Shown: piece after piece, positions 45,632 to 63,437 of the stretch
How positions within the stretch are numbered: the first letter of the stretch is position 1
How the letters are laid out: each line of letters opens with the position of its first letter
Source of the DNA: Cladopsammia gracilis
Lineage: Eukaryota > Cnidaria > Anthozoa > Scleractinia > Dendrophylliidae
Direction: 5' to 3'
Assembly: GCA_022457155.1 (NCBI GenBank)
Contig: JAJGOT010000170.1
Location: 652,501 to 716,500 of the forward strand
DNA length: 64,000 nucleotides
Made by a program: the position numbers and the translations under genes
The notes under the pieces: model-generated
Databases searched by the model: none
The model's input: the letters and a program-made list of their open reading frames with translations, nothing else
What the model was told of the DNA's origin: nothing

Positions 45632-45843
45632 AGTAGTATAGGGGCTTGGTGATCCGGGACCACCTCCAAACGCCCGAATAACCGCTTATTTTGGGAACTC
45701 CCGAACGCCCGAGTTACCGTGCCCCCAAGGCTCATTGCATTCGCCCTGGGGGCACGGCAACTTGGGCGTTCGGGAGTTCCCAAAATAAGCGGTTATTCGG
45801 GCGTTTGGAGGTGATCTCGGATACACCAAGCCCCTATACTACT
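45632..45843. repeat. Palindromic left terminus of element B
   Basis: Outer arm 45632-45733 (starts AGTAGTATAGGGGCTTGG) and inner arm 45735-45843 are inverted copies with a central hairpin (GTGCCCCC / GGGGGCAC, 11-nt innermost loop). The same AGTAGT start and arm orientation are seen at the right end of element A. Confidence 0.85.
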
Positions 45844-45925
45844 CAGTGCTTGTGAATGCTGGCCCGACACGAGATCGCCAATTGAAGAAACCACACCCCC
45901 GCATATACCAACCCCCACCCACATG
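45735..45925 (+). repeat. Left terminal inverted repeat of element B
   Basis: About 190 bp matching the inverse of 63253-63437. The repeat includes the inner palindrome arm, the CAATTGAAGAAACC box, a CATATACC box and the first codons' ACATGG, so the two outermost genes share one promoter. Confidence 0.85.
45879..45892 (+). promoter_or_regulatory. CAATTGAAGAAACC box before the exonuclease gene
   Basis: The box ends 30 nt before the ATG at 45923, and a CATATACC box lies between them. Copies stand before three further genes (47681-47693, 58187-58200, 63281-63294). Confidence 0.6.
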
Positions 45926-47029
45926 GCGAACGTGAAAGCTTTCAAGGCCTTCCTTAAATCACGCGAGACTGGTCTGATTCAAAGGAGCGAAGAATGGGTC
46001 AAAGCCAGACAAAATACAATCGGAGCCTCGGAGATCTCTGCCTTGACAGGGTCTTCGCCATTTGAGAGTCAGTCAAGTCTAATTCGCAAAAAAGTAAACC
46101 CCATCGACATGAGCAAAAATGTGGCCTGCGCTTGGGGCACATTGTTTGAGTTTCTAGTCCGTGAATACTTTGAGAAGAAACATTCTGTCAAAGTTTTCGG
46201 ATATAAGGGCTCTATAAATCTTCCAAAGGATCACCCTCTTTTTGGAAAAGTTTCTTTCAGCCCAGACGGATATTTCTCACACAAAGACGAGACAATTGTC
46301 TTGCTAGAGTTTAAGTGCCCTTACACCAGAAAGATCGCATGCAAAAAAATTCCTAAACAGTATCGTGATCAAATACAAACCGGCCTTGCTCTCAGCGGAG
46401 AGAGAGTTAACAAAGGCTCGTTTGTAGATGCCTATTTCAGAATGTGTTCTTTGAAGCAGCTTGGCCTTAGCCTTGAACATAATTCCTTTCCAAACAAAGG
46501 GGTTGTACACAAAACGAAAAAACCATCAGCACGTGCATGGGGTATTTATCTTCTATCTTCCAAACAAAAATTATTTCCGGATCAGACAAAATTACTTGAC
46601 CTCGGCGCAACAAAATCAACAGCTATGTTTGAAAAAATTATGAAAGGAATTTCATCTGGAGATTTCGTGTGTAGCGGTGATTGGTTTTATATGAGCTATA
46701 ATGAGGATCAGAAACGAAGCGATTTAGATTTTTTGAAGGAAATAAACAGAATGACATTCAGTGAAGCTTGGACCCCACACTATTATAAGACAGTTGCCTT
46801 CTTTTCATGGAAGCTTCTTGATATAACAACAATTTGGGAAACAAAACAATTAAATTTCTTAGAAAATATTCACGAATCGATCAACCGGTTTCATGAAAAT
46901 TTATCAAAACAAAAACACCTTGACAAAACCATACCTGGTGAAACTTTTGAAGACAACATCGGCGATGACAGTGCCATGTTGGAAGCCTTTCTGAATGAGA
47001 AAGCGGCAACTCTTACTCCAGATCTTTGA
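45923..47029 (+). CDS. YqaJ/lambda-type exonuclease (viral alkaline nuclease-like)
   Basis: This intact 368-residue PD-(D/E)XK nuclease reads 'IGASEISALTGSSPF' (33-47), 'WGTLFEFLVREYFE' (71-84, E76), 'FSPDGYF' (D115), 'LLEFKCPY' (E129-x-K131) and 'YRDQIQTGLAL' (147-157). These are the motifs of YqaJ/lambda exonuclease in order. Such enzymes resect DNA 5'-3' for single-strand annealing recombination and genome maturation in phages, baculoviruses and herpesviruses. It is the first gene inside the left terminal repeat and its ATG is part of the repeat. It ends tail-to-tail with the VLTF3-like gene, overlapping it by 17 nt. It is not found in element A. Confidence 0.88.
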   Translation: MANVKAFKAFLKSRETGLIQRSEEWVKARQNTIGASEISALTGSSPFESQSSLIRKKVNPIDMSKNVACAWGTLFEFLVREYFEKKHSVKVFGYKGSINLPKDHPLFGKVSFSPDGYFSHKDETIVLLEFKCPYTRKIACKKIPKQYRDQIQTGLALSGERVNKGSFVDAYFRMCSLKQLGLSLEHNSFPNKGVVHKTKKPSARAWGIYLLSSKQKLFPDQTKLLDLGATKSTAMFEKIMKGISSGDFVCSGDWFYMSYNEDQKRSDLDFLKEINRMTFSEAWTPHYYKTVAFFSWKLLDITTIWETKQLNFLENIHESINRFHENLSKQKHLDKTIPGETFEDNIGDDSAMLEAFLNEKAATLTPDL

Positions 47030-47663
47030 AAGCATTGCTCCATAAATGTTCGTTTTTAATTATCATATTGTTTGACATCTGTTGTCTCATGTAATTCACA
47101 AGCGCTCGTTGCGGGGCTTCAAGCGGTGTTGTAATGTCCATGATTTTGTAGATCACAAACGTATAAGAGATTCTCGGAAGCCGAGCTTCTATATGTTTGA
47201 AGATGTGTTTCGTGTCATTGATTTGGTCTAGAGTCAATTTCACAGGCAGCAATTCGAGCTTCTTTATAAGCCATTTAAAAGCATACCCAAACGCATAACA
47301 TCGCGCCGACTGCCTTTGCCTTGGCCTGTAAAAAATGTTTTGATCCGTATATGCCGGAGCATAATCCTCTAGCACTTCCACGCGACCGCATTTTTTGCAA
47401 TAAAGTTCACAAGAATCGATTGATCGCAAAAATGCGCCACCGCAATAATAACAAGACAGAAATCTTCGGTCCCAACGTTCACGCTGCAAGCCGTTATTAT
47501 ATTCTTGTAGAAATTGTTTACCCATCTCTGCCTGCCCCATATCTTCGTACATCTGATAAAGTTTGTCCGGCAGGCACAAGCGGTGTATTTCTTTTCTGTA
47601 ATCGCTGCCGCATAGCGAACGAAGTTTGTCAAGTTCATTGAGCCGTGCGGTGAAGTCAGTCAT
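47013..47663 (-). CDS. VLTF3-like late transcription factor (zinc ribbon)
   Basis: Starting at the ATG at 47661-47663 ('MTDFTARLNELDKL'), the protein has 216 residues. It has a zinc ribbon C71-x2-C74 ... C89-x2-C92 ('CYYCGG', 'LYCKKCGRV'), then 'YRPRQRQSARCYAFGYAFKW' and a helical C-terminal half. The order ribbon, Tyr/Arg helix, helical domain is that of poxvirus VLTF3 and of the element A protein at 10763-11311. It would recruit RNA polymerase to late virion promoters. A CAATTGAAAAAAC box is placed 17 nt upstream. The frame is intact. Confidence 0.5.
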   Translation of the reverse strand: MTDFTARLNELDKLRSLCGSDYRKEIHRLCLPDKLYQMYEDMGQAEMGKQFLQEYNNGLQRERWDRRFLSCYYCGGAFLRSIDSCELYCKKCGRVEVLEDYAPAYTDQNIFYRPRQRQSARCYAFGYAFKWLIKKLELLPVKLTLDQINDTKHIFKHIEARLPRISYTFVIYKIMDITTPLEAPQRALVNYMRQQMSNNMIIKNEHLWSNAFKDLE

Positions 47664-47680
47664 GCTTAAACAATAGAATT

Positions 47681-47693
47681 GTTTTTTCAATTG
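47681..47693 (-). promoter_or_regulatory. CAATTGAAAAAAC box before the VLTF3-like gene
   Basis: On the minus strand ACGAGATCACCCAATTGAAA matches the terminal-repeat version ACGAGATCACCAATTGAAGA almost exactly. Confidence 0.55.
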
Positions 47694-47865
47694 GGTGATC
47701 TCGTGATTTCCGGTATCATTAAGTAAAGGCCGTATTTAGAAAAATACAACTTTTCGGCCATATTTGCGCATGCGTAGTTCTTTATGAGTTACCACATGTG
47801 AAAGCACGGCAATTAGCTCGAATATAAAAGACCTTTTCGCACCATATATTATATTAAGTCTGTAA

Positions 47866-48165
47866 TTCGGTATAGCTCAGGGAGGTGTGGTTGGCCCCCA
47901 CTGAATCCTGCTTACGGCTAATGCGATGTCAGACCAGGGGTAGTGGGGTTGCTGAGTCAGTTAGTGACCTCCTGGTGAACCAGCCCCGGCCCAACTGATA
48001 CAGGGGGGTGCTCGAACAGAGATCTCCTAGGAGAACTCGACCTCGCTCCCAGAGGCTAAATGGAAAATGACAACTCCCTTGTCAGGAGTTAAAAGTCCTA
48101 GCCTAGGCTAGGCAAACGGAAACAGCCGCCAGAGCACCCCCTGACTAGGGTTTTGTCCCTTTTCG
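47866..48165 (+). ncRNA. Candidate structured RNA or SINE inside element B
   Basis: About 300 bp without a reading frame lie between the VLTF3-like gene and the next gene. A TATAAAAG box at about 47824 precedes it by about 40 bp. A TAGCTCAGGGAGG string at about 47873 resembles a Pol III A-box. Strong stems are present: GGGGGTGCTC (48004-48013) pairs with GAGCACCCCC (48132-48141), AACTCC/GGAGTT near 48070-48087, and CTCCTAGGAG. A TTTT run is at 48154-48162. It could be a viral Pol III RNA, or a SINE that jumped in. Confidence 0.35.
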
Positions 48166-48264
48166 TTATGTGTCACGCATGACAGTCACGCACAATGTCA
48201 CGTCATGTGTCACGCTTTGTCACACAATTGCGTTCTTTTGTTAGATAAAGCGAGAAACCCGAGT

Positions 48265-48941
48265 TTACTCTTTCAAATCCGACTTGGACACGGCAGCAAG
48301 ACGATTGAGTTTTTTTTGAAATTCTTCTTTGACTTCTTTGCGAAGCTCGCCTCTGAGTTTTTCAAGATCTGGAGTTTGAGTTTGCTTGTTTACTTTGGTG
48401 GCCTTTGCTTCACCAGACCGTATTTCGTTCTTAAGTTCATAATAGCTCTCAACTTCAGGGAGGATTATTTTGAACTCTGAACACTGATACTCTTGTCAGT
48501 TAGAGCTTTTGAAACCAGCTCAAAGACAGAGTTTCGTTTTGCAAGGGCGAGTGTGTGTATTTTTTCGTGTTTCCTGATCTTTTTCTCAAGCCGCCTGCTA
48601 AACAAAGTGGTGCCGGCCGCCGAAAAACCTGTCATAGCTGCCACGCCGGCAATAACAGGGCTGGCTATGAGCCCGGCTCCGGTCAGAGCTGTGGCGATTG
48701 TGGCTGTAGACAAGCCTGTAGAAATGAAACCAAAACTTACTGCGGTTCCGTGAACAATGGTTTGTGTTCGCTTGTATTTCTTAGCAACTTGTCTGTAATG
48801 ATTAGCCTCCGACTCAAGCTCCTTTTGCAAGTCAGAGATTTTTTTGAGTCTGAAGTCTTCGCCGTTGGATAAGACTGGGTAAATTGATTGAGACTCGCTG
48901 TATTCAGGGGCTGATGGCAACACGTTAGCCGAGCTCATCAT
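48265..48941 (-). pseudogene. Coiled-coil/transmembrane protein, frameshifted
   Basis: The ATG at 48939-48941 lies next to a (TA)n array. The first frame encodes 'MMSSANVLPSAPEYSES', a coiled segment ('ISDLQKELESEANHYRQ') and a Gly/Ala-rich hydrophobic part with two possible membrane helices ('FGFISTGLSTATIATALTG', 'GLIASPVIAGVAAMTGFSA'). It stops at 48465. A second frame continues to 48265 ('FKIILPEVESYYELKNEI') and carries the rest of the protein, so there is a frameshift near 48480-48490. It is probably a virion membrane or core component; family function unknown. Confidence 0.55.
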
Positions 48942-48942
48942 T

Positions 48943-48944
<2 letters not shown>

Positions 48945-48995
<51 letters not shown>
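48945..48995. repeat. (TA)n array between two genes
   Basis: About 25 TA units between the 48941 start and the stop of the 48997 gene, at the place where other genes of the element have a single TATATA box. Confidence 0.9.
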
Positions 48996-48996
<1 letters not shown>

Positions 48997-48998
<2 letters not shown>

Positions 48999-49662
48999 AA
49001 TTGATCTCAAGTTCAAATTCAAGCGGCATGTTATTGAAGTCAAAAAGGTCATTGTTCTCATCCCTCACAGACAGTGTTATGCTGTTTACATAATCACCAG
49101 ACGAGACGTCACGCAAGATGTTCTGCTGTGTTGTTTCATAGAAAACTCTCTCATAGGCCTTTCCACGAAGAGCAAATTTAGCCAAAACTGTAGAAGGCTT
49201 ACCATTGAGTAGGTTTTGTTCTTTATCGACCAGATCACAGTGGATAAAGTAAGTGCTTGGTGATGTTAATCCTTTGACGAATGTTATAAAGAGCAATTTA
49301 GGACTTATACCAAGCAATTCAGACAGATCGCGGTCAAGCTTCACCCCCGCAGAATAATGTTTGGCAATTGTCATCTGGCGAAATGGAGCATTTGTTTCGG
49401 TTTTTAATTTAAAGTTACCTTCGAAGGCTTCTTCAAATTCTTTTGCCAATCTATCAATAGTGTAATGCCCTTCAAGTATTCTTCTGGTAGTCTTGTGCTC
49501 ATTAGGGTTAGTAGTTAATGTAATCTCACCTCTTTGTTTTAGATTAAACCACGAATTATAAATCGTGGTGGATAAGAATCGTATGTAACTCGGTTTCTGA
49601 AGCGGGTGATCGAAATAGATGGTTTGAGGGTTCGAAGGCGCGACGATTGTTAGCACAACCAT
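48997..49662 (-). CDS. Candidate minor capsid (penton-like) protein, copy 1
   Basis: This intact 221-residue protein has the features 'IYNSWFNLKQRGEITL' (33-48), 'ILEGHYTIDRLAKEFEEAF' (62-80), 'LSELLGISPKLLF' (about 113-125) and 'YFIHCDLVDKEQNLLNGKP' (about 139-157). The plan resembles the 3258 gene of element A and it has a damaged tandem copy next door. It is compact and beta-rich with no signal or membrane segment. The ATG follows CTATATATACACA. Penton or vertex function is inferred from size, capsid-cluster position and the correspondence to element A. Confidence 0.5.
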
Positions 49663-49676
49663 TGTGTATATATAGT

Positions 49677-50292
49677 TTATATTATTTCTATTTCAAAAAA
49701 TAAAGGTAAGCCATTAAAATCAAAAAGCTCTCCGTGTTCGCCCTTGACTGAAATTGTTAAACTGTTTACAAATTCACCAGACGATGTTTTAAGATATGCA
49801 GCATGTTCTCTGTTCTCAGAAGCTGGACCAATATCCGTCTATAATTTCCGCCATCCCCAAAACATCTGAAGGCTTTCCATTGAGTAAGGTTTGTTCTTTA
49901 TCGATAAGATCACAGTGAACGTAATACATCGCCGGTGATGTAAGTTTTTTAATGCATGTATCTCTCTGTAATTTAGTACTTATACCTAACAATTTAGCCA
50001 AATTAGGACTAAGTTCTACATCATTAGGAAAATGTTTTTTCACATGCATTCTCGCAAAGGGTTCATCGGCTACGATATGTACCTTTACTGGTTGACCCTT
50101 AAATAACTCCGTTACCCAATTCTTCAGAGTGTCTGCAGTGTAATGTCCTTCGGGTATTTTCAAGACAGTTCCTTTTTTATTTTCGCCAGTTGTATACCAT
50201 GTTATTGTTGCGTCTTCTTTCAAATTATACCACGAATTATAAAGCCAGATTGTGTGAGGGTTCGAAGGTGCGACGATTCTTAGCATAACCAT
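49677..50292 (-). pseudogene. Candidate minor capsid protein, copy 2, frameshifted
   Basis: A paralogue of the 48997 gene: 'MVMLRIVAPSNPHTI', 'ILKIPEGHY'-type region, 'LSPNLAKLLGISTKLQ' and 'YYVHCDLIDKEQTLLNGKP'. The first frame stops at 49816. A second frame ending at 49677 encodes the expected C-terminus ('SSGEFVNSLTISVKGEHGEL'), so there is a frameshift near 49850. It is shorter in the N-terminal loop than copy 1. The ATG at 50290-50292 borders a long (TA)n array. Confidence 0.6.
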
Positions 50293-50293
50293 G

Positions 50294-50296
<3 letters not shown>

Positions 50297-50385
<89 letters not shown>
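50297..50385. repeat. (TA)n array in a divergent promoter
   Basis: About 44 TA units fill the space between the divergent genes starting at 50292 and 50406. Confidence 0.9.
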
Positions 50386-50387
<2 letters not shown>

Positions 50388-50405
50388 AATTATATTTATA
50401 TAACC

Positions 50406-52208
50406 ATGTTTGGCAGACGTGGTTCAAATCTCGGTCTAGACATTGGCGGCCACGATTACGGACCTCCGCCCCCGTTTTTTCCTCGTCCCCAAAATCCCCT
50501 CTATCAACATCCTAGAACAACACAACCCGCAGTAAATCCGCAACTGGCTTGGATGAGTTCTCCGGAGGCTGCAAAACTCTCTACAGCTGCCAAGGCTAAG
50601 GCAATCTCAGACTTCAAAAGGCGTTTCCCGCACGCTGATATGTCAAGATTTACAACAGAAGTTTCTTTCGACGAAAAGCACAAAGCCTCAGCAGTAGTTC
50701 TTTTCCCAGAGGGGCAAGGCTCCTGGGCTATGCCCTCAGACATACCGCACAAGAATTGGACACAAGCCCTGAAAGACGCCCTTGGCTTAGAGTATATTGG
50801 CGGTTTCCCCTATCAGTTGACGTTAAACCGAAACACACAAAAACCAATCCCTGCTGTTGAATTCTCCACATCAATCGATAAAGACATGATGATTGGCTCT
50901 GTCTTGAACGATGAAGCGCAAAAGATCTATGTCACGCCAACTGATTATTTCACAACGAAATACAGAAACATTTTCAGAGACACACAAATTTCGTTCACAA
51001 CCGCGAAATATGGGAGAAAGTGGCTCGGCGGTCCGCATATGAGTTTCTGGCCACAACAACTGAACTTCGCCCTGTGGTGTGCAACAACCGGCTGCGGGAT
51101 CTCGCGTGACCTTCTGTTTGATAAGAACTCTACTCTCTCCCTAACCCCGCAGCTTCGGTCATTTTACAGGTTTCACGTCTATTTCACAACAAGACGAATA
51201 CTCTACAAGCTGGGTGGGGAACAGAGCGTGAGTGCTTTGCCAGACGACCCTACATTCAACCAGAAAGACAACAAGTTCAACATCGATGCATACAAGAGGA
51301 TTTGTCAAGAGTTCGGTGTCGACCCCAATTCTGACTTCCGTTTCACATACGGCAAAAACCACGGTCTTGGCAATGTGTACATTTGGGTCGCATATGATGG
51401 GCCCAGTTCTACTGATTACAACTATCCTGATCCCGATCTAGCCCTGTTTGATGACGAGCGCGTCACAGACAGAAAAGACCCAAACTATCGCGCAAACGGC
51501 ATATACTTCGTTCGTAACGACCAAGGCGCGGTTAGTCAGTTTGAACACTTTGTGCCGAATTATGCACAAGGGTTAACACAGTCAGGGCTCGCGCGTATGA
51601 ACCAATCAATCGAGGCCTTTGTGTACTGCATTCTGGGTGCACAAGCCAAAACCCGCAGCAGCATCATTGGAAGAGGAGGCCGGGCGTTCGAAACGCAGAG
51701 AGTATTCCTCACCCATCTAGAGGAGGCCATAATACTGAACGACATCGCAACAAGCGTACAGCGATATCAGCTTGCCATCCAAGCAACGAAAGTGCGCTTA
51801 GACTTTGCGACAGCGCCCGGAAGCTGGCTCATGCCATCACGCATGATTATCAACACAGAGAGCGTGGTGGGGTACAACAACAATCTCAAGGAGGCAACGC
51901 AAGGTATGAAGCTGGGTGTGAACAACGATGTTAACCTGGGCACAAAAAAAGCCTCCCTTCGCCCCATGGATGGGGGACCAACAAAAATAAATCCACCAAA
52001 CAGTCATCCATCAAACCCGATACATAAACAGGCCACACAGGCACAGGGCATCGCAAAGACCACACCACATCCCACACCACAACCCACTCCACAGCCCAAA
52101 CCACAACCAGCCCCAACAACACCACAGCCCGACTCACATCACGTAAACAAGGCACTCATTGGTGCGGGTGCGATTGCTTTAGCAGGCGTTATCGTTTGGT
52201 TTAGATAA
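50406..52208 (+). CDS. Large virion-type protein with C-terminal membrane anchor
   Basis: This intact 600-residue protein starts at the ATG at 50406, after TATTTATATAACC. The open frame reaches further upstream through the TA array but that part is artefactual. Its parts are a Pro-rich N-terminus ('GPPPPFFPRPQNP'), a globular body (about 50-500) with 'FWPQQLNFALWCATTGCG' and 'LRSFYRFHVYFTTRRILYKL', a long Pro/Thr/Gln low-complexity spacer (about 545-575), and a terminal hydrophobic helix ('ALIGAGAIALAGVIVWF'). The family is widespread in coral elements by my recollection but has no known function. Length is in the range of double jelly-roll capsids, but the membrane anchor argues for a spike or membrane-associated structural protein. 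Confidence 0.6.
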   Translation: MFGRRGSNLGLDIGGHDYGPPPPFFPRPQNPLYQHPRTTQPAVNPQLAWMSSPEAAKLSTAAKAKAISDFKRRFPHADMSRFTTEVSFDEKHKASAVVLFPEGQGSWAMPSDIPHKNWTQALKDALGLEYIGGFPYQLTLNRNTQKPIPAVEFSTSIDKDMMIGSVLNDEAQKIYVTPTDYFTTKYRNIFRDTQISFTTAKYGRKWLGGPHMSFWPQQLNFALWCATTGCGISRDLLFDKNSTLSLTPQLRSFYRFHVYFTTRRILYKLGGEQSVSALPDDPTFNQKDNKFNIDAYKRICQEFGVDPNSDFRFTYGKNHGLGNVYIWVAYDGPSSTDYNYPDPDLALFDDERVTDRKDPNYRANGIYFVRNDQGAVSQFEHFVPNYAQGLTQSGLARMNQSIEAFVYCILGAQAKTRSSIIGRGGRAFETQRVFLTHLEEAIILNDIATSVQRYQLAIQATKVRLDFATAPGSWLMPSRMIINTESVVGYNNNLKEATQGMKLGVNNDVNLGTKKASLRPMDGGPTKINPPNSHPSNPIHKQATQAQGIAKTTPHPTPQPTPQPKPQPAPTTPQPDSHHVNKALIGAGAIALAGVIVWFR

Positions 52209-52212
52209 GTGT

Positions 52213-53683
52213 TCAAGACTTCGCACGCTTGCTGACCCTTTCAACAAGGAAGGCCACCACGGCAAGGATGAGCAGCCAGGCGTGTTGACCCAGAAAAAAG
52301 ATGACCGACCCAGCAGCTTTGAAGATGAAGCTCACAATTGACCCAAGCAAGCCAGGCAGGGCGTTGGCTGCCTTTTTGCCAAGCTCTTTAAGTCCATTTC
52401 CAATAGCCTTGGTGGCCTTTGCAAAGCTGTTCAAGGTGGCGAGTACCACAGCGCTGATGGTGATGCCAGCTGCCAGAACAATCGCTTGCAGGGTCCATCC
52501 GTATTTCTTGAAGATTTCTCTAACCCGCTCTCTCAAAGACATGCCCCTCTCACGCACCTCAATTTCTGTGTTGACCCTTGCTAGCTCTTCTTCACGTTCA
52601 GCAACCCGGGCTTCCGCGGCTTCTCTTTCAGAGGGAGAAGTGTTCTCATCCTCTATGACGCGCTTGTCTTCAGCGTTCTGCCGTTCAAGCTCTTCTTTGT
52701 TCTGTTTCAGTTCGTCCAGTGGTTTCACAGCGTCCTGTTTTCCTCTAAGCTCCTCTCGGCGTCTGTCTAATCCCCTACTGTCAAGTTTTAGTTTGTCGAT
52801 TTGCTTTTTTAGTTTGTCTGCGTGTTGGGCAGTTTTTTGCGCATTGTCCAGTTGTTTTCGTTTAGCTTGATGCTCAGCTTCAACAGCTCTTTTCATTTTT
52901 TAGTCTTTGTATTTCCTCCGTATTCAGTGGCCCATGTGCATCTTCCTTCTCTTGAATCTGGTCATTAACATCTTTGATTCTATTTCTGAGGGCATCCGTG
53001 TCGCGGCGAAGTTTTTGTGCATCCGCACCCCTTTGTTCCATTTGTTGTAGTTCATTTTGTTTTGCTTCCAGTTCTTTTTGAGTTGCTTCAAATGCAGCAT
53101 TTGTCTCATTGAACTCTTCAGGCAAAGACTTTCCGAGAGCAGCTTTTATCTCTTTGGGAAGAGAAGCGTTGAGAGTCTTTTCGGAAGCCCCACGGCTTCT
53201 TGTGTAAAGAGGATACCATTTGTCTCTAGTATGATATTTCACCTCGATGATGGCCCCACCTGATTTTGGTTTCGTCTCGTACCGAAAATTAAGTTGATTT
53301 CTGTCTACGCTGGTAAACTCGTTCTTAACCTCGTCAAAGGCCATATCATCCATTGTTAACAATCGCCGGTCTTGAGTAGCCCCTGTAATGAAAGAGGTTT
53401 CTTCAGTGTGGGAGCCTTGTTGTTCTGGGGGCAACCTTGTTCTTGGGATCATAGGCACTTGTTCACCAGATGGTGTGGAAGCAGCCCCTAGTTCAAAGGG
53501 GTTCGTGGTGTCACCTGGTTTAAAGGGTTGCGTGGTGTCGGTGTCTTTTAAGGACTGTACCCACTGATTGAATTCTTCTTCTGTCATCTGTTTATCCCAT
53601 GTGTTGTCACCGCCATCCCCTGTGTCTGGGATGAGAGGGTCTGTGTCAGTTGCCTCGTCAGGTATATATCCGCCTTCTGCCAT
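52213..53683 (-). pseudogene. Coiled-coil protein with C-terminal membrane helices, one frameshift
   Basis: The N-terminal piece (53683-52880) begins at 'MAEGGYIPDEATDTDPLIP' and is acidic, becoming coiled-coil ('FEATQKELEAKQNELQQ', 'IQEKEDAHGPLNTEEIQ'). The C-terminal piece (52896-52213) continues the coiled coil ('LKKQIDKLKLDSRGLDRRRE') and ends with two or three hydrophobic helices ('AIVLAAGITISAVVLAT', 'LLILAVVAFLV'). They overlap by 17 nt in different frames at an A-rich site, which fits a single gene of about 490 codons broken by a frameshift near 52890. Programmed frameshifting is possible but less likely. Probably a virion membrane scaffold; function unknown. Confidence 0.6.
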
Positions 53684-53724
53684 GATGATATATAAATATA
53701 AGTTTAAAAACACAAATATATACC

Positions 53725-54971
53725 ATGGCTGTGCAACTGAATCTACTTCCATCTCACAGTGAAAAGACAGTGGGTGCCATGAAGGCAGAGCAGCGAACCG
53801 TTAAGCGCATCACATTCAACCCTTCTGAGGCCAATCCCAGCGAGACACTGTACGTCTCGGTGCCCAAGCTGGGCGAGCATGATGTCCTTGTGTCCGGCTC
53901 GCTTGCACTTGTGTTCAACATCAACCTAGCTGGGGGCCACGTAACAACTTTCTCGTGCAAAATGTTTCTAGGGCCCTGGTGGACAGGCTAGTTGTAAGGT
54001 TTGGCGCCACCACCGTCGAGGACACAGTTGGGTACGACATCTATAAGATCTTCGAAGACCTTTTCAAATCAACCGATGAGCGGGACAACATGCTTATGGA
54101 GGGCATCCAGAGTGTGGATTTGTGTAAGATTTGATCTGTTGCTGGCGACAAGAAGACTTCCGGCGTGGATGCAGAGAACAAGCTTGAGTCAATATACAAG
54201 AATAAGTACCGCATCAAACTGGATCACCAAATCTTAACTGATCACGGAATCATGTACCCTCAGGCCCTATACAGTGATCTGGTCTTCGAACTAACCCTAG
54301 CCCCCGCAAGCCAAGTTGTCCGAGGCTCAGACACAAGCAAGCTCGTGTACAAGTTGGAAAACATCCAGCTGGAGTACGAGACGATCAGAAGTAAGGAGCT
54401 GGCCGACGAAGCAACAAGCACTTATACTAGCGGCAAGGGGTTCGCCTATGACTTCGTAATGCGAGATCGGGTGCATCCCTTCTCAAAAAGCGGGGACACT
54501 CGGATGAATCTTCGGGTAAACCCACAGCGCCGGTCTCTCAAGGGCATCCTCTTGCTGTTCATCAACCCCTATGTTGCGGGCGCAAGGGACTCTGAGAATT
54601 ATTTTAATCCCGACATCACCAAAGTGAAGGTCACCGTAAATGGGGTTCCAAACAGGGTCTACAACGAGGGTATCGCCGGCAGTGATATGTGGAGTGAAAT
54701 CTCCCGACACTTTCACACGCGCGGCAGGCCCAACATGAACCTGACCAAATATCTCACAGGCAACAAGTTTGGTCTCTGGATTGACCTGCGGTCCATGGCT
54801 GACCCAGCTCTGCACGGCAACGGCCAACGGCTAGTCAACACACAGGATGGCGTGCAACTCCAGATTGAACGAAACGGCACAGGCTCGGTAAATGCAAACT
54901 GCCACATCTTCACCATCTCAGACTCACAGTTGAACATCATTAGCAGGCAGCTGGAATCTGTACAGTACTAA
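53725..54971 (+). pseudogene. Major capsid protein candidate of element B, frameshift and nonsense
   Basis: The first frame covers 53725-53945 ('MAVQLNLLPSHSEKT', 'LVSGSLALVFNINLAGG'). Near 53945-53957 the coding shifts to the frame that runs to 54971. That frame is interrupted by a TGA at 54132-54134 and reopens at once ('KKTSGVDAENKLE'). Further blocks are 'LDHQILTDHGIMYPQALY', 'DLVFELTLAPASQVVRG', 'NPQRRSLKGILLLFINPY' and 'FGLWIDLRSMADPALHG'. About 415 residues long with strand-rich content, comparable in length to element A's capsid candidate, and divergent from the coiled-coil gene. The start follows AAATATATACC. Capsid identity is an inference. Confidence 0.6.

Positions 54972-55860: not shown

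Positions 55861-55940
<80 letters not shown>
55857..55940. repeat. (TA)n array before the ATPase gene
   Basis: About 42 TA units immediately upstream of the broken ATPase frame; its expansion may have removed the start codon. Confidence 0.9.
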
Positions 55941-55942
<2 letters not shown>

Positions 55943-55945
55943 ACG

Positions 55946-56885
55946 TCTATGATAAACCGGCTCCCCTACCATCCACCGGACCATTATCACACAATGAAAT
56001 AGAAAAACTTCTGGCAAAGGCGCCCTCTCCACCGACACATGAGCCAATTGTTTGCAAACCAACTAATATAGGCGTTGGCTATGGACCCAATAAAGCTGCC
56101 ATTCAACGCACTAATCGTGGGCCCCACTAACTCTGGCAAGACACAGTATCTTCTAAACCAACTGCGAGGCCCCTTTAGGGGTTGTTTTGATTACATCGTT
56201 TTATTGTCCCACATTTGTCAAGAACAAGACATACGATGGCTTCGTGGACCGCGATCCGCACATCTTTGTGATTATCTGCCAACAGCATGAAATCGAAGAC
56301 TGGTTGAAGGAGGCGAGCTTCTTTTTCACAGGCACTAACACTTTATTCATTCTCGATGACTGCGCCGCCTCCAAAGATGTCAAAGGCCGCACGAGCCAGC
56401 TGGTCAATCTGGGGTTCAGTGCAAGGCATGATGGCATATCCGTATGGGTCTTGACACAGCAGAGCACCAGCATTGCCAAGCCATATCGTGACAACATTGC
56501 AGCGATCGTGCTCTTCAAAAGATACGAGGCCTATGTCGGCAACAAGACAACAGAATCCCTAGTTGATTCAGCCATAATGCTCTTGTCCAAAGGAGTTGGC
56601 ATGGTGGTCGACCTTGATGATGTCAAGGAATTACAGAAAGAACTCAAAAATGATTACATCATCTATCAGGAGCTGTCAAATCTTGCTGGAGGTCTTGCCC
56701 TGAGATGTGGACGATGGCTGGCGCTTGCCAATGCTGCTCTCATCACAACAAAACACGTCAAGTTTGAACGAAAGCCTGATCACAAGCCTGACTTAATAGA
56801 ATTGGAAGCACAACCCACACATCCAAGCAGAGACAGTGAAGGTTATCCACTTGAGGGCTTTGATGAAGTTGGGCTGGGACCTTGA
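55946..56885 (+). pseudogene. FtsK/HerA-type packaging ATPase, two frameshifts
   Basis: The N-terminal frame ('PLPSTGPLSHNEIEKLL', no ATG left) reaches about 56075. A second frame contains Walker A GPTNSGKT (about 56120-56143). Near 56200-56210 it shifts again into the frame that ends at 56885. That frame carries Walker B 'TLFILDDCAAS', 'GRTSQLVNLGFSARHDG' and a sensor-like 'WVLTQQ'. This is the A32/FtsK packaging ATPase that loads DNA into the capsid, and the counterpart of 1423-2076 in element A. As it stands it cannot give a full protein. Confidence 0.8.
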
Positions 56886-56991: not shown

Positions 56992-57444
56992 ATGGCCACA
57001 CCACTCGAGGCGATCCCTGAAGAAACGCCAACTCCAACACCTGCACGTGTTACCTCTGAGGCCCCGAAAACAAAGCCTGCAACAGAAAAGAACCCCGGCC
57101 GCGTTGCTTCTGGCAAAAGGCTAGCAGAACGCAACCGCCTGGCCCGTGAAGCAAAGAAAAAGGCCGAAGCACAAAAGTCCGCACCCTCAACAAGTGACAC
57201 CAGTACTGCAAACCAACCCTCAACAAGTGACATAACAACTGACACCAACAGCAACTCAATCTTTTATATTCTGGGGAATGGAGGGTTGATTGTCTCTGTT
57301 ATGGGTTTGTATTACCAAAGCGAAGCCATAATGCAAAAGCTTAACCGCAAACCACCAGCAACACCAGCAAACACACCGACCCCACCACCAGAACAACCCC
57401 CATCTCGAATTCCGGTAAGACAAGGAATCAAAAAAATGGAATAA
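56992..57444 (+). CDS. Single-pass membrane protein
   Basis: The ATG at 56992 follows CATATATATATCCACT. The 150-residue product has a Pro/Thr-rich start, a basic Lys/Arg/Ala helix (about 35-62, 'RLAERNRLAREAKKKAE'), one hydrophobic segment (about 91-108, 'FYILGNGGLIVSVMGLYY') and a Pro-rich tail. This plan is common among short virion membrane proteins of coral Polinton-class elements, but no function is known. It is the first of four small genes in a row. Confidence 0.55.
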   Translation: MATPLEAIPEETPTPTPARVTSEAPKTKPATEKNPGRVASGKRLAERNRLAREAKKKAEAQKSAPSTSDTSTANQPSTSDITTDTNSNSIFYILGNGGLIVSVMGLYYQSEAIMQKLNRKPPATPANTPTPPPEQPPSRIPVRQGIKKME

Positions 57445-57477: not shown

Positions 57478-57699
57478 ATGGCTGACAATAAGTTTGTGAA
57501 GTCTATCCTCGACGCCGCAACAATAACTGGCCTTGTCGCTGGTATTGGTTGGATTGGTAAAAAGACCGTCAAAGAAAACTTCACTGCCGACCCCAGTGCA
57601 AGCTTTATGAACTACGTCAAGTTCACAGCCGTCATGGCTGGCAGCATCGCGCTGAAGAAATATCTTGAGGACCAGAAAATCCTCCCAGACAACATGTAA
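57478..57699 (+). CDS. Small hydrophobic protein
   Basis: 73 residues with two moderately hydrophobic helices ('AATITGLVAGIGWIG', 'YVKFTAVMAGSIALKKYL'). The ATG follows ACATATGTATAC by 13 nt. Probably membrane-associated virion component; unknown family function. Confidence 0.5.
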   Translation: MADNKFVKSILDAATITGLVAGIGWIGKKTVKENFTADPSASFMNYVKFTAVMAGSIALKKYLEDQKILPDNM

Positions 57700-57724: not shown

Positions 57725-58162
57725 ATGGCCAGCATTGCAATAATGGCCCTTGGCGCTGTTTTGAATGCTGCAGCTTTCACTGGCGGCAATTATCTCGCGA
57801 AGTATCTATCTGGTGATAACGGAAAGGCAGCAATGGATGAGAAAATCCGGCATGACCACGCTCTGGAACAATACCAAGCGGCTTACGCCAAATACCAGAA
57901 GGACCGCACTAAGCTCCTCGACTGGATTGCAGCCAACGATCGGATAAAACACCAAGCTAGCCAAAACTTTCAAACCACCAACCAAGCCCTGGTCTTGTAT
58001 AACCAGATGCATAAATCACAACCAGATAAACAAATCAAAGATTACAAAGAACCTCAGTTCTCGGACTTCTACAGACCCAGCCCACAACAGCAGACTGGTG
58101 AACTTGCGTTCATTGGAGGCACCCTGCTTGCGGGTGGGTATGCAGCATATCGCCTTCTGTAA
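57725..58162 (+). CDS. Small membrane/coiled protein
   Basis: 145 residues. An N-terminal hydrophobic stretch ('IAIMALGAVLNAAAFTGG'), a charged helical middle ('EQYQAAYAKYQKDRTKLL') and a C-terminal hydrophobic helix ('LAFIGGTLLAGGYAAYRLL') give a membrane-helix-coil-membrane plan. The ATG follows CATATGTATACACACCACCAC. Start chosen there rather than at the longer frame. Function unknown. Confidence 0.5.
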   Translation: MASIAIMALGAVLNAAAFTGGNYLAKYLSGDNGKAAMDEKIRHDHALEQYQAAYAKYQKDRTKLLDWIAANDRIKHQASQNFQTTNQALVLYNQMHKSQPDKQIKDYKEPQFSDFYRPSPQQQTGELAFIGGTLLAGGYAAYRLL

Positions 58163-58186: not shown

Positions 58187-58200
58187 CAATTGAAGAAACC
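58187..58200 (+). promoter_or_regulatory. CAATTGAAGAAACC box before the 58224 gene
   Basis: Identical 14-mer to the terminal repeat copies, followed by CCTTCCCC, TATATTC and the ATG 23 nt downstream. Confidence 0.6.
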
Positions 58201-58223: not shown

Positions 58224-58466
58224 ATGTCTAAGATCTGTGCGAAGGAAAAGTTACCAGACTTCTCAGAATGGTCTGATCACTTTATCAATGAAAACATTGG
58301 AAACTTGGTTGATTCATTTCATGAATGTATTCAACTTTTTGAAGAAATTGCAAAGAGCGATTCCGCGACTCCATCGGAAAAATCTAAAGCTTCAAAAGCT
58401 ATACGAAAATTTGCTTTTGCTCGTGACCATCTCATTGACGTGATGATGAAAGTAGAAGAACAATAA
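58224..58466 (+). CDS. Small helical protein of the CAATTGAAG-box group
   Basis: 80 residues, acidic/helical ('FSEWSDHFINENIGNLVD', 'HECIQLFEEIAKSDS'). No family recognised. Its promoter carries the same 14-bp box as the exonuclease, VLTF3-like and PolB genes, so it is probably an early replication-stage or regulatory protein; this is inference from context. Confidence 0.5.
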   Translation: MSKICAKEKLPDFSEWSDHFINENIGNLVDSFHECIQLFEEIAKSDSATPSEKSKASKAIRKFAFARDHLIDVMMKVEEQ

Positions 58467-58487
58467 CTGCTTAAATATATATACACA

Positions 58488-59477
58488 ATGGACTCCAAAC
58501 TCTCAAAGATCTATTACAGCCCCAAAGGCTACCGGAAAGGTCTTGCCGCTGTAAAAAAGCTAGCTGCAGCAGCCAAGGTCTCTGAGGAGGTGGCAAAGAA
58601 ATGGCTGGCCAAACAAGCCCTTTGGCAAGTTTACCTCCCAGCGCCACGCCATATACCTCGCCCAAAGTTTGATGTCCAGACTCCTAATGCGGTGCATCAA
58701 GCTGATCTACTTTTTTTGCCACACGACAAACTTCCACACGGTAGAAAGATTTACAAATATGCTTTGACAGTTGTTGATGTAGCTAGCCGTTACAAAGCAG
58801 CAGAGCCCTTGACTTTGAAAGAGTCTGATGAATTTTCAAAGGCGTTGGCCCGGGTATATAGGCGTGGGCCTTTGAAATGGCCACAACTGTTGCAAGTCGA
58901 TCCGGGGACAGAGTTTATGGGAGCTGTGACTAAAGAGACTGGGGCCCATAAAACAACCATTCGCCGTGGGCGCGTTGATATCCACAGAGACCAAGGGATT
59001 GTTGAAAGATTCAACAGAATCCTGGCTGAACGATTGTTTGGTTACCAGTACGCTGTTGAAATGAATCTGCCCTCTGGCCGTTCGACTGCTTGGGTTAAAA
59101 GATTGCCAGATGTTATCTCGGCTTTGAACAATGAAGTGACACAACTCACTGGCAAGAAGCCTGCGCAGGCGATCAAAGAGAAAGCTACCTCAGCCAAACC
59201 AGCAACCCCATATTTAAGACCAGTGGGGGTGAATGAGAAGAAGCTCCCTCCTCGGGTTAATTTGCGATATCTGTATTACCCCGGTGAGCTTGAGGGTGGT
59301 AGTCGACGAGCGACTGATCCAATCTGGTCTTTGAAAGTCTACCAAATACAAAGGATTGTCACCAAGCCAGATGCACCGGCCGTCTATTATCTGTACGACG
59401 GACCCAAGCGCGGGTTTGTCCGTGAGGAGTTGATGCTTGTGCCGCCGGGCACTCAGTTGCCTCCGATGTCTTTGTGA
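58488..59477 (+). CDS. RVE-family integrase without chromodomain
   Basis: This intact 329-residue integrase has an N-terminal helical domain, the DDE core D73 ('QADLLFL'), D138 ('QVDPGTEFMG') and E173 ('QGIVERFNR') with D-E spacing of 35, and a C-terminal SH3-like basic region ('YQIQRIVTKPDAPAVYYLYD'). It joins the linear element to host DNA. Unlike element A's enzyme it has no chromodomain. The ATG follows AAATATATATACACA. Its end overlaps the 3' end of PolB by 25 nt, tail to tail. Confidence 0.92.
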   Translation: MDSKLSKIYYSPKGYRKGLAAVKKLAAAAKVSEEVAKKWLAKQALWQVYLPAPRHIPRPKFDVQTPNAVHQADLLFLPHDKLPHGRKIYKYALTVVDVASRYKAAEPLTLKESDEFSKALARVYRRGPLKWPQLLQVDPGTEFMGAVTKETGAHKTTIRRGRVDIHRDQGIVERFNRILAERLFGYQYAVEMNLPSGRSTAWVKRLPDVISALNNEVTQLTGKKPAQAIKEKATSAKPATPYLRPVGVNEKKLPPRVNLRYLYYPGELEGGSRRATDPIWSLKVYQIQRIVTKPDAPAVYYLYDGPKRGFVREELMLVPPGTQLPPMSL

Positions 59478-62400
59478 CCATATGCAAGCGTATGGACGCC
59501 ATCGTCTTTTATCCAGCGCTTTGAATCAAACGGAGAGAGCGTTGTCTTGGTGATGTGCTCACCGAAGATTTGGTGGCCTTTGCTTCGGAGTCTGTCCATC
59601 CCATGCTTGAAGGTTCGCCGGTCGAAAAAAGCTTCCTTGTAATTCTGGTGGATGATCTCTTTCTTTGTGACAACCTTTGTGGTGCCCTTTGCTTTCTTGA
59701 TGTCCAGCTTAGCTTTGATTTCTTTACCGTCCTTGTCCTTTTTCTTCATACACCTACTGTCGTCTTTCAAGATGCTGTACATCTTCGAGCGAAGACATAC
59801 AACCTCTGAGATGGGCACACCTTCGCACTCGTCCTTCATCTTCCCAATGACCTTCTTGTTAAGCTGGCTGTGGAGTGGATGGTCCTTGGGATAGTCACTT
59901 GTGTCGTAGAGTTCATCCCGAAGGTTCTCCATGCCTTTGTAAACATCATCCGTCTTGATCTCGAGGAGCAGAGAGTCTGTGTCTGTGTAAAGTAGGTCTA
60001 CGCGTGGACCATATTTCAGCTTGAGATGTTTGTAATAGAAGTCATACATCAGTGTTTTGGAAAGATCATGGATGCACATGCCTGTGTAGACTGGGCGGTT
60101 GAAGAGGATTTTCTCCCTGTGCATCTGGATCCCCGCCATGTTAGCTCCAAAGACTGTTGCTCTGGAAAACAGCGGGCTTGCGATTAGCTTTCTAATCTTG
60201 TCTTGCTCGTGCGATCGGACAAGCTTCATGTCGATTCGATTTCGGAGGTTCTCCATTGTCTTACCGAAGACTGAGTTGTTCATGAGCTTAAAGAAGTTCT
60301 TCTCAAAATCGGAAGTGGCCTTCTTTCTGAGCTCGGTGTTCGGGGAGATCTATGGCTCCATCCAAGCCCTCTGCTCGAACTTGAGCATTTTGTGGATTTT
60401 CGTCAACTTCATTCCCAGATCCAGGTACTGCTGGAGATTTCTGTAATGCAACACCTACCGGGATTTCTTGTTTAGGGTAAGGAGCAGCTTCTGTGTCTTG
60501 TCTTCTGACTGTCCCTCTGCCAAGGCCCTTTGATATGGAGACATCCATGCCTTAGGTACGACCTGACTTTCTGGGCAAAGAGGATAAGCGTTGTGCTCAT
60601 CGTGCAGCTCCTCGGGGTACTCAAGATCAACCTCGAGGATGTAACCGATCTTTCTGTTTGGCCTCCACTTTCTTATCTGGTGTTGTGTTGGAAAGACAGG
60701 GCACCATGCGAAGTTGCCAACTGGGAGAGGCTGACTCATGGCCAATCCATAGAGATTGTTCGCGTCTATGTAACTTGACTCTTCGTTGGGGTTGTGATCA
60801 CGAAGATAGGGGTTGTTAGCCTTGCAGTACCGCCTGCTCTCCATGGATATGCCACCTCGCAAGCCTCTTTCAACAAAGAGATGCATGTCAACATCTGTGA
60901 GCAGCTCCAGGTTGATGCCCGTATACCTAAGAAGAGCGTCCCATGAGAGGCCAGGACTTGTGTAATAATGTGCCGGGTCAAGTTTGTAATGTTGCAGACA
61001 TGTTTTTCTGAAGTTCTCGAAAACATCGGCCAGAAGAAGCACATCTGTCATGAGGTAGAGATCGTGGTAATCTCCAAGCGTCTTGCATCCAAATACCTCC
61101 CACACTTTTTGCGCGTGGGCGTATTCCTTATCTGAGATGCCTTCCTTCTTGAGCTCGCTGTAGAAGGCATCCTTCGGCGGGAGAGAGGTCTCCTCGAATC
61201 GAGCCCATGAGTCCATGTATTCGTATGGGTAAATCCCTTTTTGCAGGAGAAGGTTGCGTTTGGCTTGGTTCTTCTCATAGTTTGCCGTGATTGTTAAGGG
61301 CTCTGGCTTGTTTGCTTCAACCAGGGCACTGAGGCTTGACTGCATGAACTGCAAGCTGTCAATGAACCTCAGCTTGCCGAGAGAGAAAGAGATGTATTTC
61401 TCCATGTTGTTTGGGATGCATTTCAAATCGGAGTGAATGTTTGCAATTCCACTCATGATGTGGTGCGCATCATAACCCCTCAAGTTGTGAAAGATTACGG
61501 GGACTATTTCGGTTTTCGGGTTGGTTCAGAAGTAGTTGATGTTGCAAAAACTGTGAGCCGCGCCCCGATATTTGCCTGTGATGTGACAATGATCTTTAAC
61601 TGCGTCTCGAACAGAGTCTTGTATTAGAGATCCCCCGCAGAAAAGGCAGTCGACCTGCTCGAATAAATTGTCTGTGATGGACTTCCACTTGCTTCTTGGC
61701 CCAACAAATGGGAACTCTTTTAATTCACCATCCTCGCCCTGGATGAAAGTTTTGAATGCCTTTTGGTAACATTTGTTGGTGAAACGATGAACAAAGCCCG
61801 CGTATTCTCCAGTGTTGGGATCATAGACCGCAACGGCGTCCCTGTGGTTCCTCTTGGTGAGAGACTTGTTACAGATGTGGGAGTCAGTTGCACAGTTGAA
61901 TTCAATCCATTCCTCTCTCGTCATTGAATAAGGCTTCTTGTGTTGTAGTTCGTCTCTGATCACTCCTTCCAGCTGTTGAAGGCTGTTAAGAAAGACCGGC
62001 ACCGCGTCCTCTCCTCTGTATAGGTAAGGGCCCTTTGTCTCCCCATCAGAGCGAACAGCTAACATGCAGAACCCACAGGGTTTGTGTACGGATGTCGCAG
62101 TGGTGCTGCTCTGTTGGGGATCTGGTATGCATCCATGGACTTTTTCGACAATGCTTTCGAAGTCAGCATAAATAACCCAAGGCTTCTTCATCTGGTTCTG
62201 AAAGTTCTCAAAGAGGAAGTTTTCACCTTCTTTGGGCATTTCAACTCGTGCCGGCCTGCCTTTGACTCCCCTGCAATAGAAGAGATGGTCGGTGAGAACC
62301 CTTTCTGAAGAGAAGGGTTGGAGACACCTGTCACAGTGATGCATGCGGCGTCCAACGTTGAACTCACTATGTAGAAGTCTGCTGATGCTCTTGATGTAAC

Positions 62401-63256
62401 AATAATGCGAAGTGTGTGTCTGTGAGCAACATCAGATTAATCCTTCGCAGATTGGGATCCTCTTGCTCACTGACTCTGATTACAACCACCTTGTTGTTTT
62501 TCCAGCCATAAACGTTGATGCAAGGTTGTTTTGGCGTTCAACCTTAGAAATCTGACTCAATGGCGTTGGAAAATCAACTCCAGTGCAGTCTAGGCCATCA
62601 TCAATGGGATAACTTCCTGGTCTGTCTGAATGCACCTCGGCAGGGAACAATGCCGATCGCAGTGCCCAACGTAGACACTGATTGTCTCTGTTCTTTACAT
62701 TGATGATTGCCTGCTTCGACCTGAGTTTTGATGGTGTTGGGATAAATGTGCCGCCTCGTAGAGGCTTGTACACCCCGAACTCAAGGTAAACAGTTTTGAT
62801 TTTATCAACCACCCAACCTGAACCCATCTGCTGCCATCTAGAAATCTCTTCCTTAAAACCATTCACAATGTCTTCCAGAATGCCCTCCTCTCGCAGCTTA
62901 TAGAGATGTGTCACAATCAGTGGTTTGTCGTTCCAAAAGAAGTGATTCATTTCTCGATTGTTATCACCTGCCATTGAAAAGTGAACATCGAATGACAAAG
63001 TGACCTTCACCTCGCCAAGCTCTGTGACTTCGCGTGCAATTCTCTGGAGAATGGCCCCCTTATTAGTTATGAAGAATGAATTCAGGTCCTTGATTTGGTA
63101 ATCATCAGGGACATTCATCTTATAACCATGCAGCGAATTACCGAAGTAATCGTGGTTCCTTGGATTGAAGTCAAGGCGTTGAGCCTCCATGTTATATACA
63201 GGGATTTCATTTTCTCCAATTGCTGGTCTCGCATCGGGCCTCTGTGCCATTGCCAT
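59453..63256 (-). pseudogene. polB: Protein-primed DNA polymerase B, decayed
   Basis: Read from the ATG at 63254-63256, this is an N-terminal domain ('SFDVHFSMAG', 'LRSKQAIINVKNRDNQCLRW'), a Cys/His finger ('HHCDRCLQPF'), exonuclease motif 'YADFESI', the 'KDHCHITGKYRGAAHSFCN' cluster, 'FHNLRGYDAHHIM', 'DYHDLYLMTDVLLLADVF', 'DANNLYGLAMSQ', 'LMNNSVFGKTMENLR' and 'YTDTDSLLLEI'. Damage: two mutually compensating frameshifts near 62510 and 62420, and in-frame stops at 61526-61528 (TGA), 60455-60457 (TAG) and 60350-60352 (TAG). It once replicated the element by protein priming; no full product is possible now. Confidence 0.9.
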
Positions 63257-63437
63257 GTGGGTTGGTATATGTGGGGGTGGGGTTTCTTCAATTGGTGATC
63301 TCGTGTCGGGCCAGCATTCACAAGCACTGAGTAGTATAGGGGCTTGGTGTATCCGAGATCACCTCCAAACGCCCGAATAACCGCTTATTTTGGGAACTCC
63401 CGAACGCCCGAGTTGCCGTGCCCCCAGGGCGAATGCA
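63253..63437 (-). repeat. Right terminal inverted repeat of element B
   Basis: Inverse of 45735-45925, containing PolB's start codon, CATATACC and the CAATTGAAGAAACC box. It has only the gene-proximal palindrome arm (63329-63437); the outer arm is absent. Confidence 0.85.
63281..63294 (-). promoter_or_regulatory. CAATTGAAGAAACC box before PolB
   Basis: 24 nt upstream of the PolB ATG on the minus strand, inside the terminal repeat. Confidence 0.6.

What the first reader, a model, noticed from the sequence alone, without database searches (positions are those of the whole stretch)
45632..63437. Element B: a Polinton-class provirus with an unusual gene set
It has PolB, RVE integrase, ATPase and capsid-type genes like a Polinton. 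It also carries a YqaJ/lambda-type exonuclease at the very left end, no recognisable adenain-like protease, no integrase chromodomain, and at least five membrane-helix proteins (48265, 50406, 52213, 56992, 57725 genes). The set suggests a virus lineage with a membrane-containing virion and recombination-based replication, distinct from element A.
Basis: partly seen in the sequence, partly recalled or inferred. Interest (0 to 1): 0.85.

Follow-up and report, generated by a model that had tools for sequence, protein, structure and literature searches.

The report
Inactivated exonuclease-bearing Polinton-lineage provirus
A worn-out 17.8-kb DNA virus copy sits in this genome; it belongs to an abundant branch of the Polinton viruses that carries a phage-type recombination exonuclease, and its genes fall into two groups with two different control signals and a hairpin-forming end.

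Summary
Element B spans 45632-63438, flanked by an exact 6-bp duplication TACAAT. It has PolB, an RVE integrase without chromodomain, an A32/FtsK-type ATPase, two penton-type genes, a probable double-jelly-roll capsid gene, and an intact YqaJ/lambda-type exonuclease beside the left terminus. No adenain-like protease was found. PolB, capsid, ATPase and second penton genes are broken.

The gene set looks like a lineage: 254 exonuclease relatives, at least 2180 of the 600-aa protein and 2253 of the capsid fragment, a third of the listed exonuclease hits on contigs of equal length with another set. My searches showed no paper naming it.

Two further features. (1) Two promoter classes: CAATTGAARAAAC before exonuclease, VLTF3-like gene, gene 58 and PolB; TATATA boxes beginning 8-12 nt before eight other genes. 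(2) The left end is a 212-nt palindrome bounded by AGTAGT...ACTACT; element A ends in a palindrome with the same boundaries; B's right end stops at the palindrome's centre.

Verdict: new variant of a known kind. Membrane virion and recombination-based replication stay inferred. Structure models failed; the genome search tool did not complete (15 tries).

The parts
45626..45631 (.). target-site duplication TACAAT (left)
   Evidence: repeated at 63439-63444
45632..45731 (.). outer arm of the terminal palindrome, begins AGTAGTATAGGGG
45732..45742 (.). 11-nt centre of the palindrome
45743..45843 (.). inner arm of the palindrome, ends CCCCTATACTACT
   Evidence: single-strand fold z -26.4
45734..45917 (+). 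left terminal inverted repeat (shared part)
45879..45891 (+). early-type motif CAATTGAAGAAAC, beginning 44 nt before the exonuclease ATG
45923..47029 (+). YqaJ/lambda-type exonuclease, 368 aa, intact
47013..47663 (-). zinc-ribbon protein, VLTF3-like (weak)
   Evidence: Pox_VLTF3 E 0.023, below cut-off
47681..47693 (-). early-type motif before the VLTF3-like gene
48465..49061 (-). membrane protein gene; likely start at 48941 after the (TA)n array
48997..49662 (-). penton-type gene 1
   Evidence: E 9e-5 / 1e-3 to A's penton-type protein
49680..50292 (-). penton-type gene 2, 47% identical to gene 1, C-terminal part in another frame (read by eye and from a weak hit of A's protein)
50406..52208 (+). 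600-aa protein of unknown function with C-terminal hydrophobic segment, intact
52213..52896 (-). coiled-coil protein with membrane segments
52880..53752 (-). coiled-coil-rich gene; likely start 53683
53725..54971 (+). major capsid protein gene, broken (a frameshift and an in-frame stop)
55930..56885 (+). packaging ATPase (A32/FtsK type), broken by frameshifts; start uncertain
56992..57444 (+). small gene
57478..57699 (+). small gene, TATGTATAC beginning at -21
57725..58162 (+). small membrane gene, TATGTATAC beginning at -20
58187..58199 (+). early-type motif before gene 58
58224..58466 (+). gene 58, 80 aa, unknown
58488..59477 (+). RVE-type integrase, 329 aa, no chromodomain
59453..63256 (-). 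protein-primed-type PolB, broken in four pieces; the two N-terminal pieces match A's PolB 238-358 and 400-628
63282..63294 (-). early-type motif before PolB
63256..63439 (-). right terminal inverted repeat; ends at the palindrome's centre (last base also first base of the TSD)
63439..63444 (.). target-site duplication TACAAT (right)
15473..16112 (.). element A's right end: palindrome with 132-nt arms, same AGTAGT...ACTACT boundaries

Best explanation
Element B is a mutated, integrated copy of a linear double-stranded DNA virus of the Polinton supergroup, from an abundant lineage marked by a YqaJ exonuclease, a 600-aa virion-type protein and its own capsid gene. Proposed working: the RVE integrase inserted the linear genome (shown: TSD and TIRs). 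Four genes (exonuclease, VLTF3-like factor, gene 58, PolB) share one promoter motif and would be expressed first (motif shown, timing inferred). The VLTF3-like factor would then switch on genes with a TATATA box just before the start codon, i.e. capsid, pentons, 600-aa, membrane and integrase genes (box shown, switch inferred). PolB copies the genome; the exonuclease resects ends for annealing or concatemer joining (inferred). The genome ends can fold into hairpins bounded by AGTAGT (palindrome shown; role in replication or end resolution inferred). The virion is a double-jelly-roll capsid, probably over a membrane and without adenain-type maturation (inferred).
For: Exact TSD and 184-nt TIR. 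Domain hits for exonuclease, PolB, integrase, ATPase. Exonuclease alignment of 24 (B's and 23 relatives): E76, E129, K131 in 24 of 24, D115 in 23 of 24; its profile hits solved lambda-type exonucleases, best mimivirus R354 at 1e-7. Capsid relatives: Capsid_N in 18 and P2_C in 17 of 26 at E <= 1, N- and C-terminal in the right order in P0320. Shared contig lengths: 41 of the 120 listed exonuclease hits (of 254) lie on a contig of the same length as a listed 600-aa or capsid hit. Promoters: CAATTGAARAAAC occurs 4 times in 64 kb, each beginning 30-44 nt before one of the four early-type genes; TAT[AG]TA within 20 nt of the start in 9 of 15 genes against 15 of 587 other ATGs, Fisher 2e-10, or 7e-7 without the three genes next to long (TA)n arrays, or 7 of 15 and 3e-7 with first-ATG starts throughout. 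Palindromes: z -26 and -32.
Against: Both AlphaFold models failed (mean pLDDT 36), so the capsid fold rests on weak Pfam matches below cut-off in 26 closely similar relatives; unrelated families reach like E-values in fewer members (MoaF_C, 4 of 26, best 0.0033). VLTF3 match is weak (0.023) and absent in NCBIfam. No annealing protein found. The exonuclease sequence alone finds nothing in the PDB at E <= 0.1. Contig-length coincidence is indirect: long contigs can hold several elements. Motifs were found by looking at this one copy and the box pattern was settled after seeing it (a first pattern gave 8 of 15 against 24 of 587); no relative's DNA could be tested. With 1 mismatch allowed, 4 of 100 shuffles gave 4 or more early-motif matches, and the exonuclease and PolB copies are one TIR sequence. 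Element A shows no early-type motif.
Confidence: 0.65

Rival explanations
1. An ordinary Polinton that lost its protease by decay and picked up an exonuclease; no distinct lineage.
For: Several genes of this copy are broken; a protease was identified in 74% of surveyed Polintons, so it was not found in about a quarter.
Against: 254 exonuclease relatives, among the 120 listed up to 63% identical over 90% or more of the query and up to 72% over shorter parts; exonuclease, 600-aa and capsid hits on contigs of the same length; exonuclease intact with conserved catalytic residues.
Confidence: 0.15
2. A chimera: Polinton-type replication and integration genes joined to virion and expression genes of nucleocytovirus type (capsid, VLTF3, YqaJ), like the meldvirus Meld23486.
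For: Capsid_N and VLTF3 hints, mimivirus R354 as best solved exonuclease relative of the profile; Meld23486 joins Beta-type PolB and integrase to poxvirus-like virion genes (PMC11071296, legend passage).
Against: All these links are weak; the exonuclease also matches a phage RecE-type family at 3e-23; a VLTF3 is reported in adintovirus-type insertions of Amoebidium (PMC11244446, passage), so it is not a nucleocytovirus-only mark.
Confidence: 0.25
3. The palindromic left end and half-palindrome right end are products of assembly error or later deletion, not of the virus's end structure.
For: Only one integrated copy seen; long palindromes are hard to sequence; the window holds other large inverted repeats.
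Against: An exact 6-bp TSD abuts both ends; the arms differ by 5 substitutions and a 1-nt gap, so they are not a fold-back read artefact; element A's end has a palindrome with the same AGTAGT...ACTACT boundaries and a decayed centre.
Confidence: 0.25
4. The AGTAGT-bounded palindromes are small non-autonomous inserts (MITE-like) that use Polinton ends.
For: Element A's 640-nt unit has 132-nt inverted ends and could be a separate insert.
Against: In B the inner half belongs to both TIRs.
Confidence: 0.15

Closest known systems
Polintons/Mavericks (Polintoviricetes)
   Same: PolB with N-terminal extension, RVE integrase, A32/FtsK ATPase, penton-type protein, TIRs
   Different: YqaJ exonuclease, no adenain-type protease found, capsid not recognisable from element A's, duplicated penton (the last has precedent)
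Adintoviruses (now Eupolintoviridae), as element A appears to be
   Same: PolB 43-51% identical over its C-terminal half
   Different: no integrase chromodomain; no PLA2 or protease hit as in A
Meldvirus Meld23486 (PMC11071296, section 16 and passages seen)
   Same: Polinton-type PolB and integrase with unusual virion genes
Mriyaviruses/Nucleocytoviricota (PMC11253617, passages)
   Same: possible VLTF3, PDDEXK/YqaJ-type nuclease, A32-like ATPase
   Different: Polinton-type PolB and RVE integrase, 17.8 kb against 35-45 kb
Lambda/RecE-type phage exonucleases and mimivirus R354
   Same: YqaJ/PDDEXK domain and, by alignment, catalytic residues (active-site identity recalled)
   Different: a C-terminal region of about 200 aa outside the matched domain; sits in an integrating eukaryotic virus

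Membership tests
Polinton/Maverick | protein-primed-type PolB | tested here: met
Polinton/Maverick | RVE-type integrase | tested here: met
   (rve below cut-off, 2e-13 to A's integrase)
Polinton/Maverick | TIRs and 6-bp target-site duplication | tested here: met
   that 6 bp is typical is recalled
Polinton/Maverick | packaging ATPase | tested here: met
   (Pox_A32 8e-5, just below cut-off; P-loop GPTNSGKT)
Polinton/Maverick | adenain-type cysteine protease (identified in 74% of Polintons) | tested here: not met
   positive control weak
Polinton/Maverick | double jelly-roll capsid protein | tested here: inconclusive
   weak co-linear Pfam hits; fold prediction failed
Adintoviruses | integrase with C-terminal chromodomain (definition in PMC11071296, section 16) | tested here: not met
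   with A as positive control
Adintoviruses | hexon recognisable by BLASTp | tested here: inconclusive
   no match to A's capsid; reference hexons not available
Nucleocytoviricota/mriyaviruses | VLTF3 | tested here: inconclusive
   E 0.023, none in NCBIfam
Nucleocytoviricota/mriyaviruses | RuvC-like resolvase and VLTF2 | tested here: inconclusive
   no such hit in 20 translations; broken genes could be missed
Virophages | primase-superfamily 3 helicase and cysteine protease | tested here: not met
   no such hit in 20 translations

The most novel reading that the evidence does not exclude
A widespread, unnamed Polinton lineage runs a giant-virus-like programme: an early promoter (CAATTGAARAAAC) for exonuclease, PolB and a VLTF3-type factor, a late TATATA-ATG promoter for virion genes and integrase, and hairpin-forming termini bounded by AGTAGT that replace or supplement plain protein-primed ends and are processed with a lambda-type exonuclease.
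Probability: 0.25. Interest if true: 0.8.

Novelty: new variant of a known kind. Interest (0 to 1): 0.58.

Why it matters
Polintons are proposed ancestors of many eukaryotic DNA viruses. A common lineage with a lambda-type exonuclease, no adenain-type protease, two promoter classes and palindromic ends would bear directly on how Polintons replicate and on the link to giant viruses. The promoter partition gives a concrete, testable prediction of early and late genes. I saw no report of one for Polintons, but one search gave only a listing (10 of 11 papers) and I read none of them.

Tried and rejected
Related DNA: six scans of viral contigs with exonuclease, ATPase, capsid and PolB queries and two of genome contigs with capsid and 600-aa alignments gave no relative. 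Structures: 600-aa and capsid models too poor to search with, so no fold search was run. PDB sequence searches: nothing for the 600-aa profile, the exonuclease sequence alone, or the PolB piece 61529-62431; only signal recognition particle chance hits for the capsid profile. Phage search: 17 records with exonuclease domain matches, all under 60% identity. The recombination endonuclease VII-like stretch in PolB (E 9e-5 in B; 3.5e-4 in A; both below cut-off) was considered as a resolvase for the palindromes but set aside, since homing-endonuclease insertions in Polinton PolB are known (PMC11071308, passage). Tail-length and other weak Pfam/PHROG hits on coiled-coil genes were taken as chance. 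The host was not identified; 'cnidarian' was not tested. Literature searches: (listings; passages seen only of the papers cited with a call). Starrett 2021 and Koonin 2024 were not held; Repbase was not searchable.
Full report
Observation. Element B occupies 45632-63438. TACAAT stands directly before its first base and directly after its last. The TIR pair 45734-45917 / 63256-63439 is 184 nt with 5 mismatches.

Genes. Left to right: YqaJ exonuclease (+, intact); zinc-ribbon, weakly VLTF3-like protein (-); a membrane protein (-); two penton-type genes (-), 47% identical to each other and matching element A's penton-type protein; a 600-aa protein (+, intact); two coiled-coil genes (-), one with membrane segments; the capsid gene (+, broken by a frameshift and a stop); a broken packaging ATPase (+); three small genes (+); gene 58 (+); the integrase (+); PolB (-, four pieces).. 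Duplicated pentons have precedent in adintoviruses (PMC11071296, section 16).

What is missing. The integrase has no chromodomain hit, whereas the same library finds one in element A. No adenain-like protease was found in 20 translations, which are 19 distinct ORFs, or in 362 stop-to-stop ORFs compared with A's protease. The control is weak: Pfam sees A's protease only at 0.022, and does not list PF03175 for A's whole PolB at E <= 10, which is known as PolB here by its match to B. PolB's N-terminal piece in B aligns with A's PolB 238-358, the part where a vOTU-type protease domain is expected from PMC11071308 (abstract and passages); that domain was not tested separately.

Lineage. Searches of 5.8 billion proteins gave 2180 relatives of the 600-aa protein among the 7989 candidates scored (a lower bound), 254 of the exonuclease and 2253 of the capsid fragment. 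The best 120 of each were listed. Among these, 22 contig lengths are shared by exonuclease and 600-aa hits, 22 by exonuclease and capsid, 17 by 600-aa and capsid, 7 by all three; 41 of 120 exonuclease hits share a length with another set, 79 do not. Some shared contigs are short (21,911; 44,201; 89,951). The length shown is that of a cluster's longest contig, and equal length is taken as same contig; that is an inference. The hits carry no organism names, so host range is unknown.

Capsid. Intact relatives are about 418 aa. In 18 of 26 a Capsid_N match and in 17 of 26 a P2_C match appears at E <= 1 (best 0.0074 and 0.0037); in P0320 they lie at 39-132 and 371-411, in the order of a double jelly-roll. 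All are below the curated cut-offs in the proteins whose scores were shown, member 1 has none, the members are 83-90% identical to the first and so not independent, and MoaF_C reaches 0.0033 in 4 members. The AlphaFold model was useless. Profile comparison with A's capsid found nothing.

Exonuclease. Residues E76, E129 and K131 are kept in 24 of 24 aligned sequences (B's and 23 relatives) and D115 in 23 of 24. The profile matches mimivirus R354 (1e-7), exonuclease 3syy (4e-6) and lambda exonuclease (6e-3) in the PDB; B's sequence alone matches none at E <= 0.1 but matches phage RecE-type family phrog_434 at 3e-23. Origin cannot be told. No annealing partner was recognised.

Two promoter classes. 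CAATTGAARAAAC occurs four times in the 64-kb window, beginning 44, 30, 37 and 38 nt before the start codons of exonuclease, VLTF3-like gene, gene 58 and PolB. Two of these lie in the TIRs and are one sequence; the other two are independent. Allowing one mismatch gives the same 4 matches, with 1.24 expected and 4 of 100 shuffles reaching 4. The last TATATA-type box begins 8-12 nt before the start codons of the membrane gene 48465, both pentons, 600-aa, second coiled-coil gene, capsid, 56992 gene and integrase; TATGTATAC begins at -21 and -20 in two further small genes. TAT[AG]TA lies within 20 nt in 9 of 15 genes against 15 of 587 other ATGs (Fisher 2e-10; 7e-7 without the three genes beside (TA)n arrays). 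That pattern was settled after seeing the sequences; a first one gave 8 of 15 against 24 of 587. Two start codons (48941, 53683) are not the first ATG of their frame and were chosen partly for their nearness to the box; with the first ATG instead the count is 7 of 15 against 17 of 587, Fisher 3e-7. In this table no gene has both motifs; the 52896 gene, which overlaps its upstream neighbour, has neither; the ATPase was left out because its start is uncertain. Of five (TA)n arrays, two stand directly before late-type starts and one at the ATPase's uncertain start; two lie between capsid and ATPase without a start beside them. The AATTGA core resembles the mimivirus early promoter (recalled, not tested).

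Termini. The left end is a 212-nt imperfect palindrome, AGTAGTATAGGGG...CCCCTATACTACT, arms 100 and 101 nt, centre 11 nt. The right TIR holds only the inner arm and ends at the centre, directly against TACAAT. Element A's right end is a 640-nt palindrome, AGTAGTTATAA...TTATAACTACT, outer arms 132 nt and 98% complementary, centre decayed but still roughly concentric. In both, the inner boundary lies 74-111 nt from the first start codon. Element A's left end is outside the window. I read this as hairpin-capable termini, with B integrated from a molecule whose right end had been cut at the palindrome's centre; a deletion or assembly fault remains possible.

Comparison. B meets the core Polinton tests but the protease test, and fails the chromodomain test for adintoviruses. 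VLTF3 was called diagnostic of Nucleocytoviricota (PMC11253617, passages), but adintovirus-type insertions with VLTF3 are reported in Amoebidium (PMC11244446, passages). Meld23486 (PMC11071296, passages) may be a relative; its sequence was not at hand.

Verdict. A real, decayed provirus of a common Polinton-type lineage for which I found no name in the papers searched. The gene set is probably ordinary within that lineage; the promoter partition and palindromic ends are the parts most worth pursuing.

Noticed in passing
window 1423-16112: Element A looks like an adintovirus-type element with long open frames: A32 ATPase 6e-17, chromodomain integrase, PLA2-like domain 4e-7, DUF2738 protein 4e-35, weak adenain and a 1301-aa PolB known by its match to B's. 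Its left end is outside the window.
   Followed up: partly
window 10763-11320: Element A has a zinc-ribbon protein that looks VLTF3-like by eye, but Pfam gave nothing and NCBIfam only a weak ZntR match.
   Followed up: partly
window 48945-48994, 50298-50383, 54980-55067, 55419-55482, 55858-55939: Five long (TA)n arrays in element B, in intergenic stretches; two stand directly before late-type start codons, as if TATATA boxes had expanded.
   Followed up: partly
window 55474-55630 and 55706-55862: 157-nt direct duplication, 97% identical, between capsid and ATPase genes.
   Followed up: no
window 31236-33274: A roughly 2-kb set of concentric inverted repeats outside the two elements.
   Followed up: no
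window 34502-39278: A 4.8-kb unit with 388-nt inverted ends, 95% complementary, probably another DNA transposon.
   Followed up: no
window 27575-28531: Tandem array with a 36-37 nt spacing.
   Followed up: no
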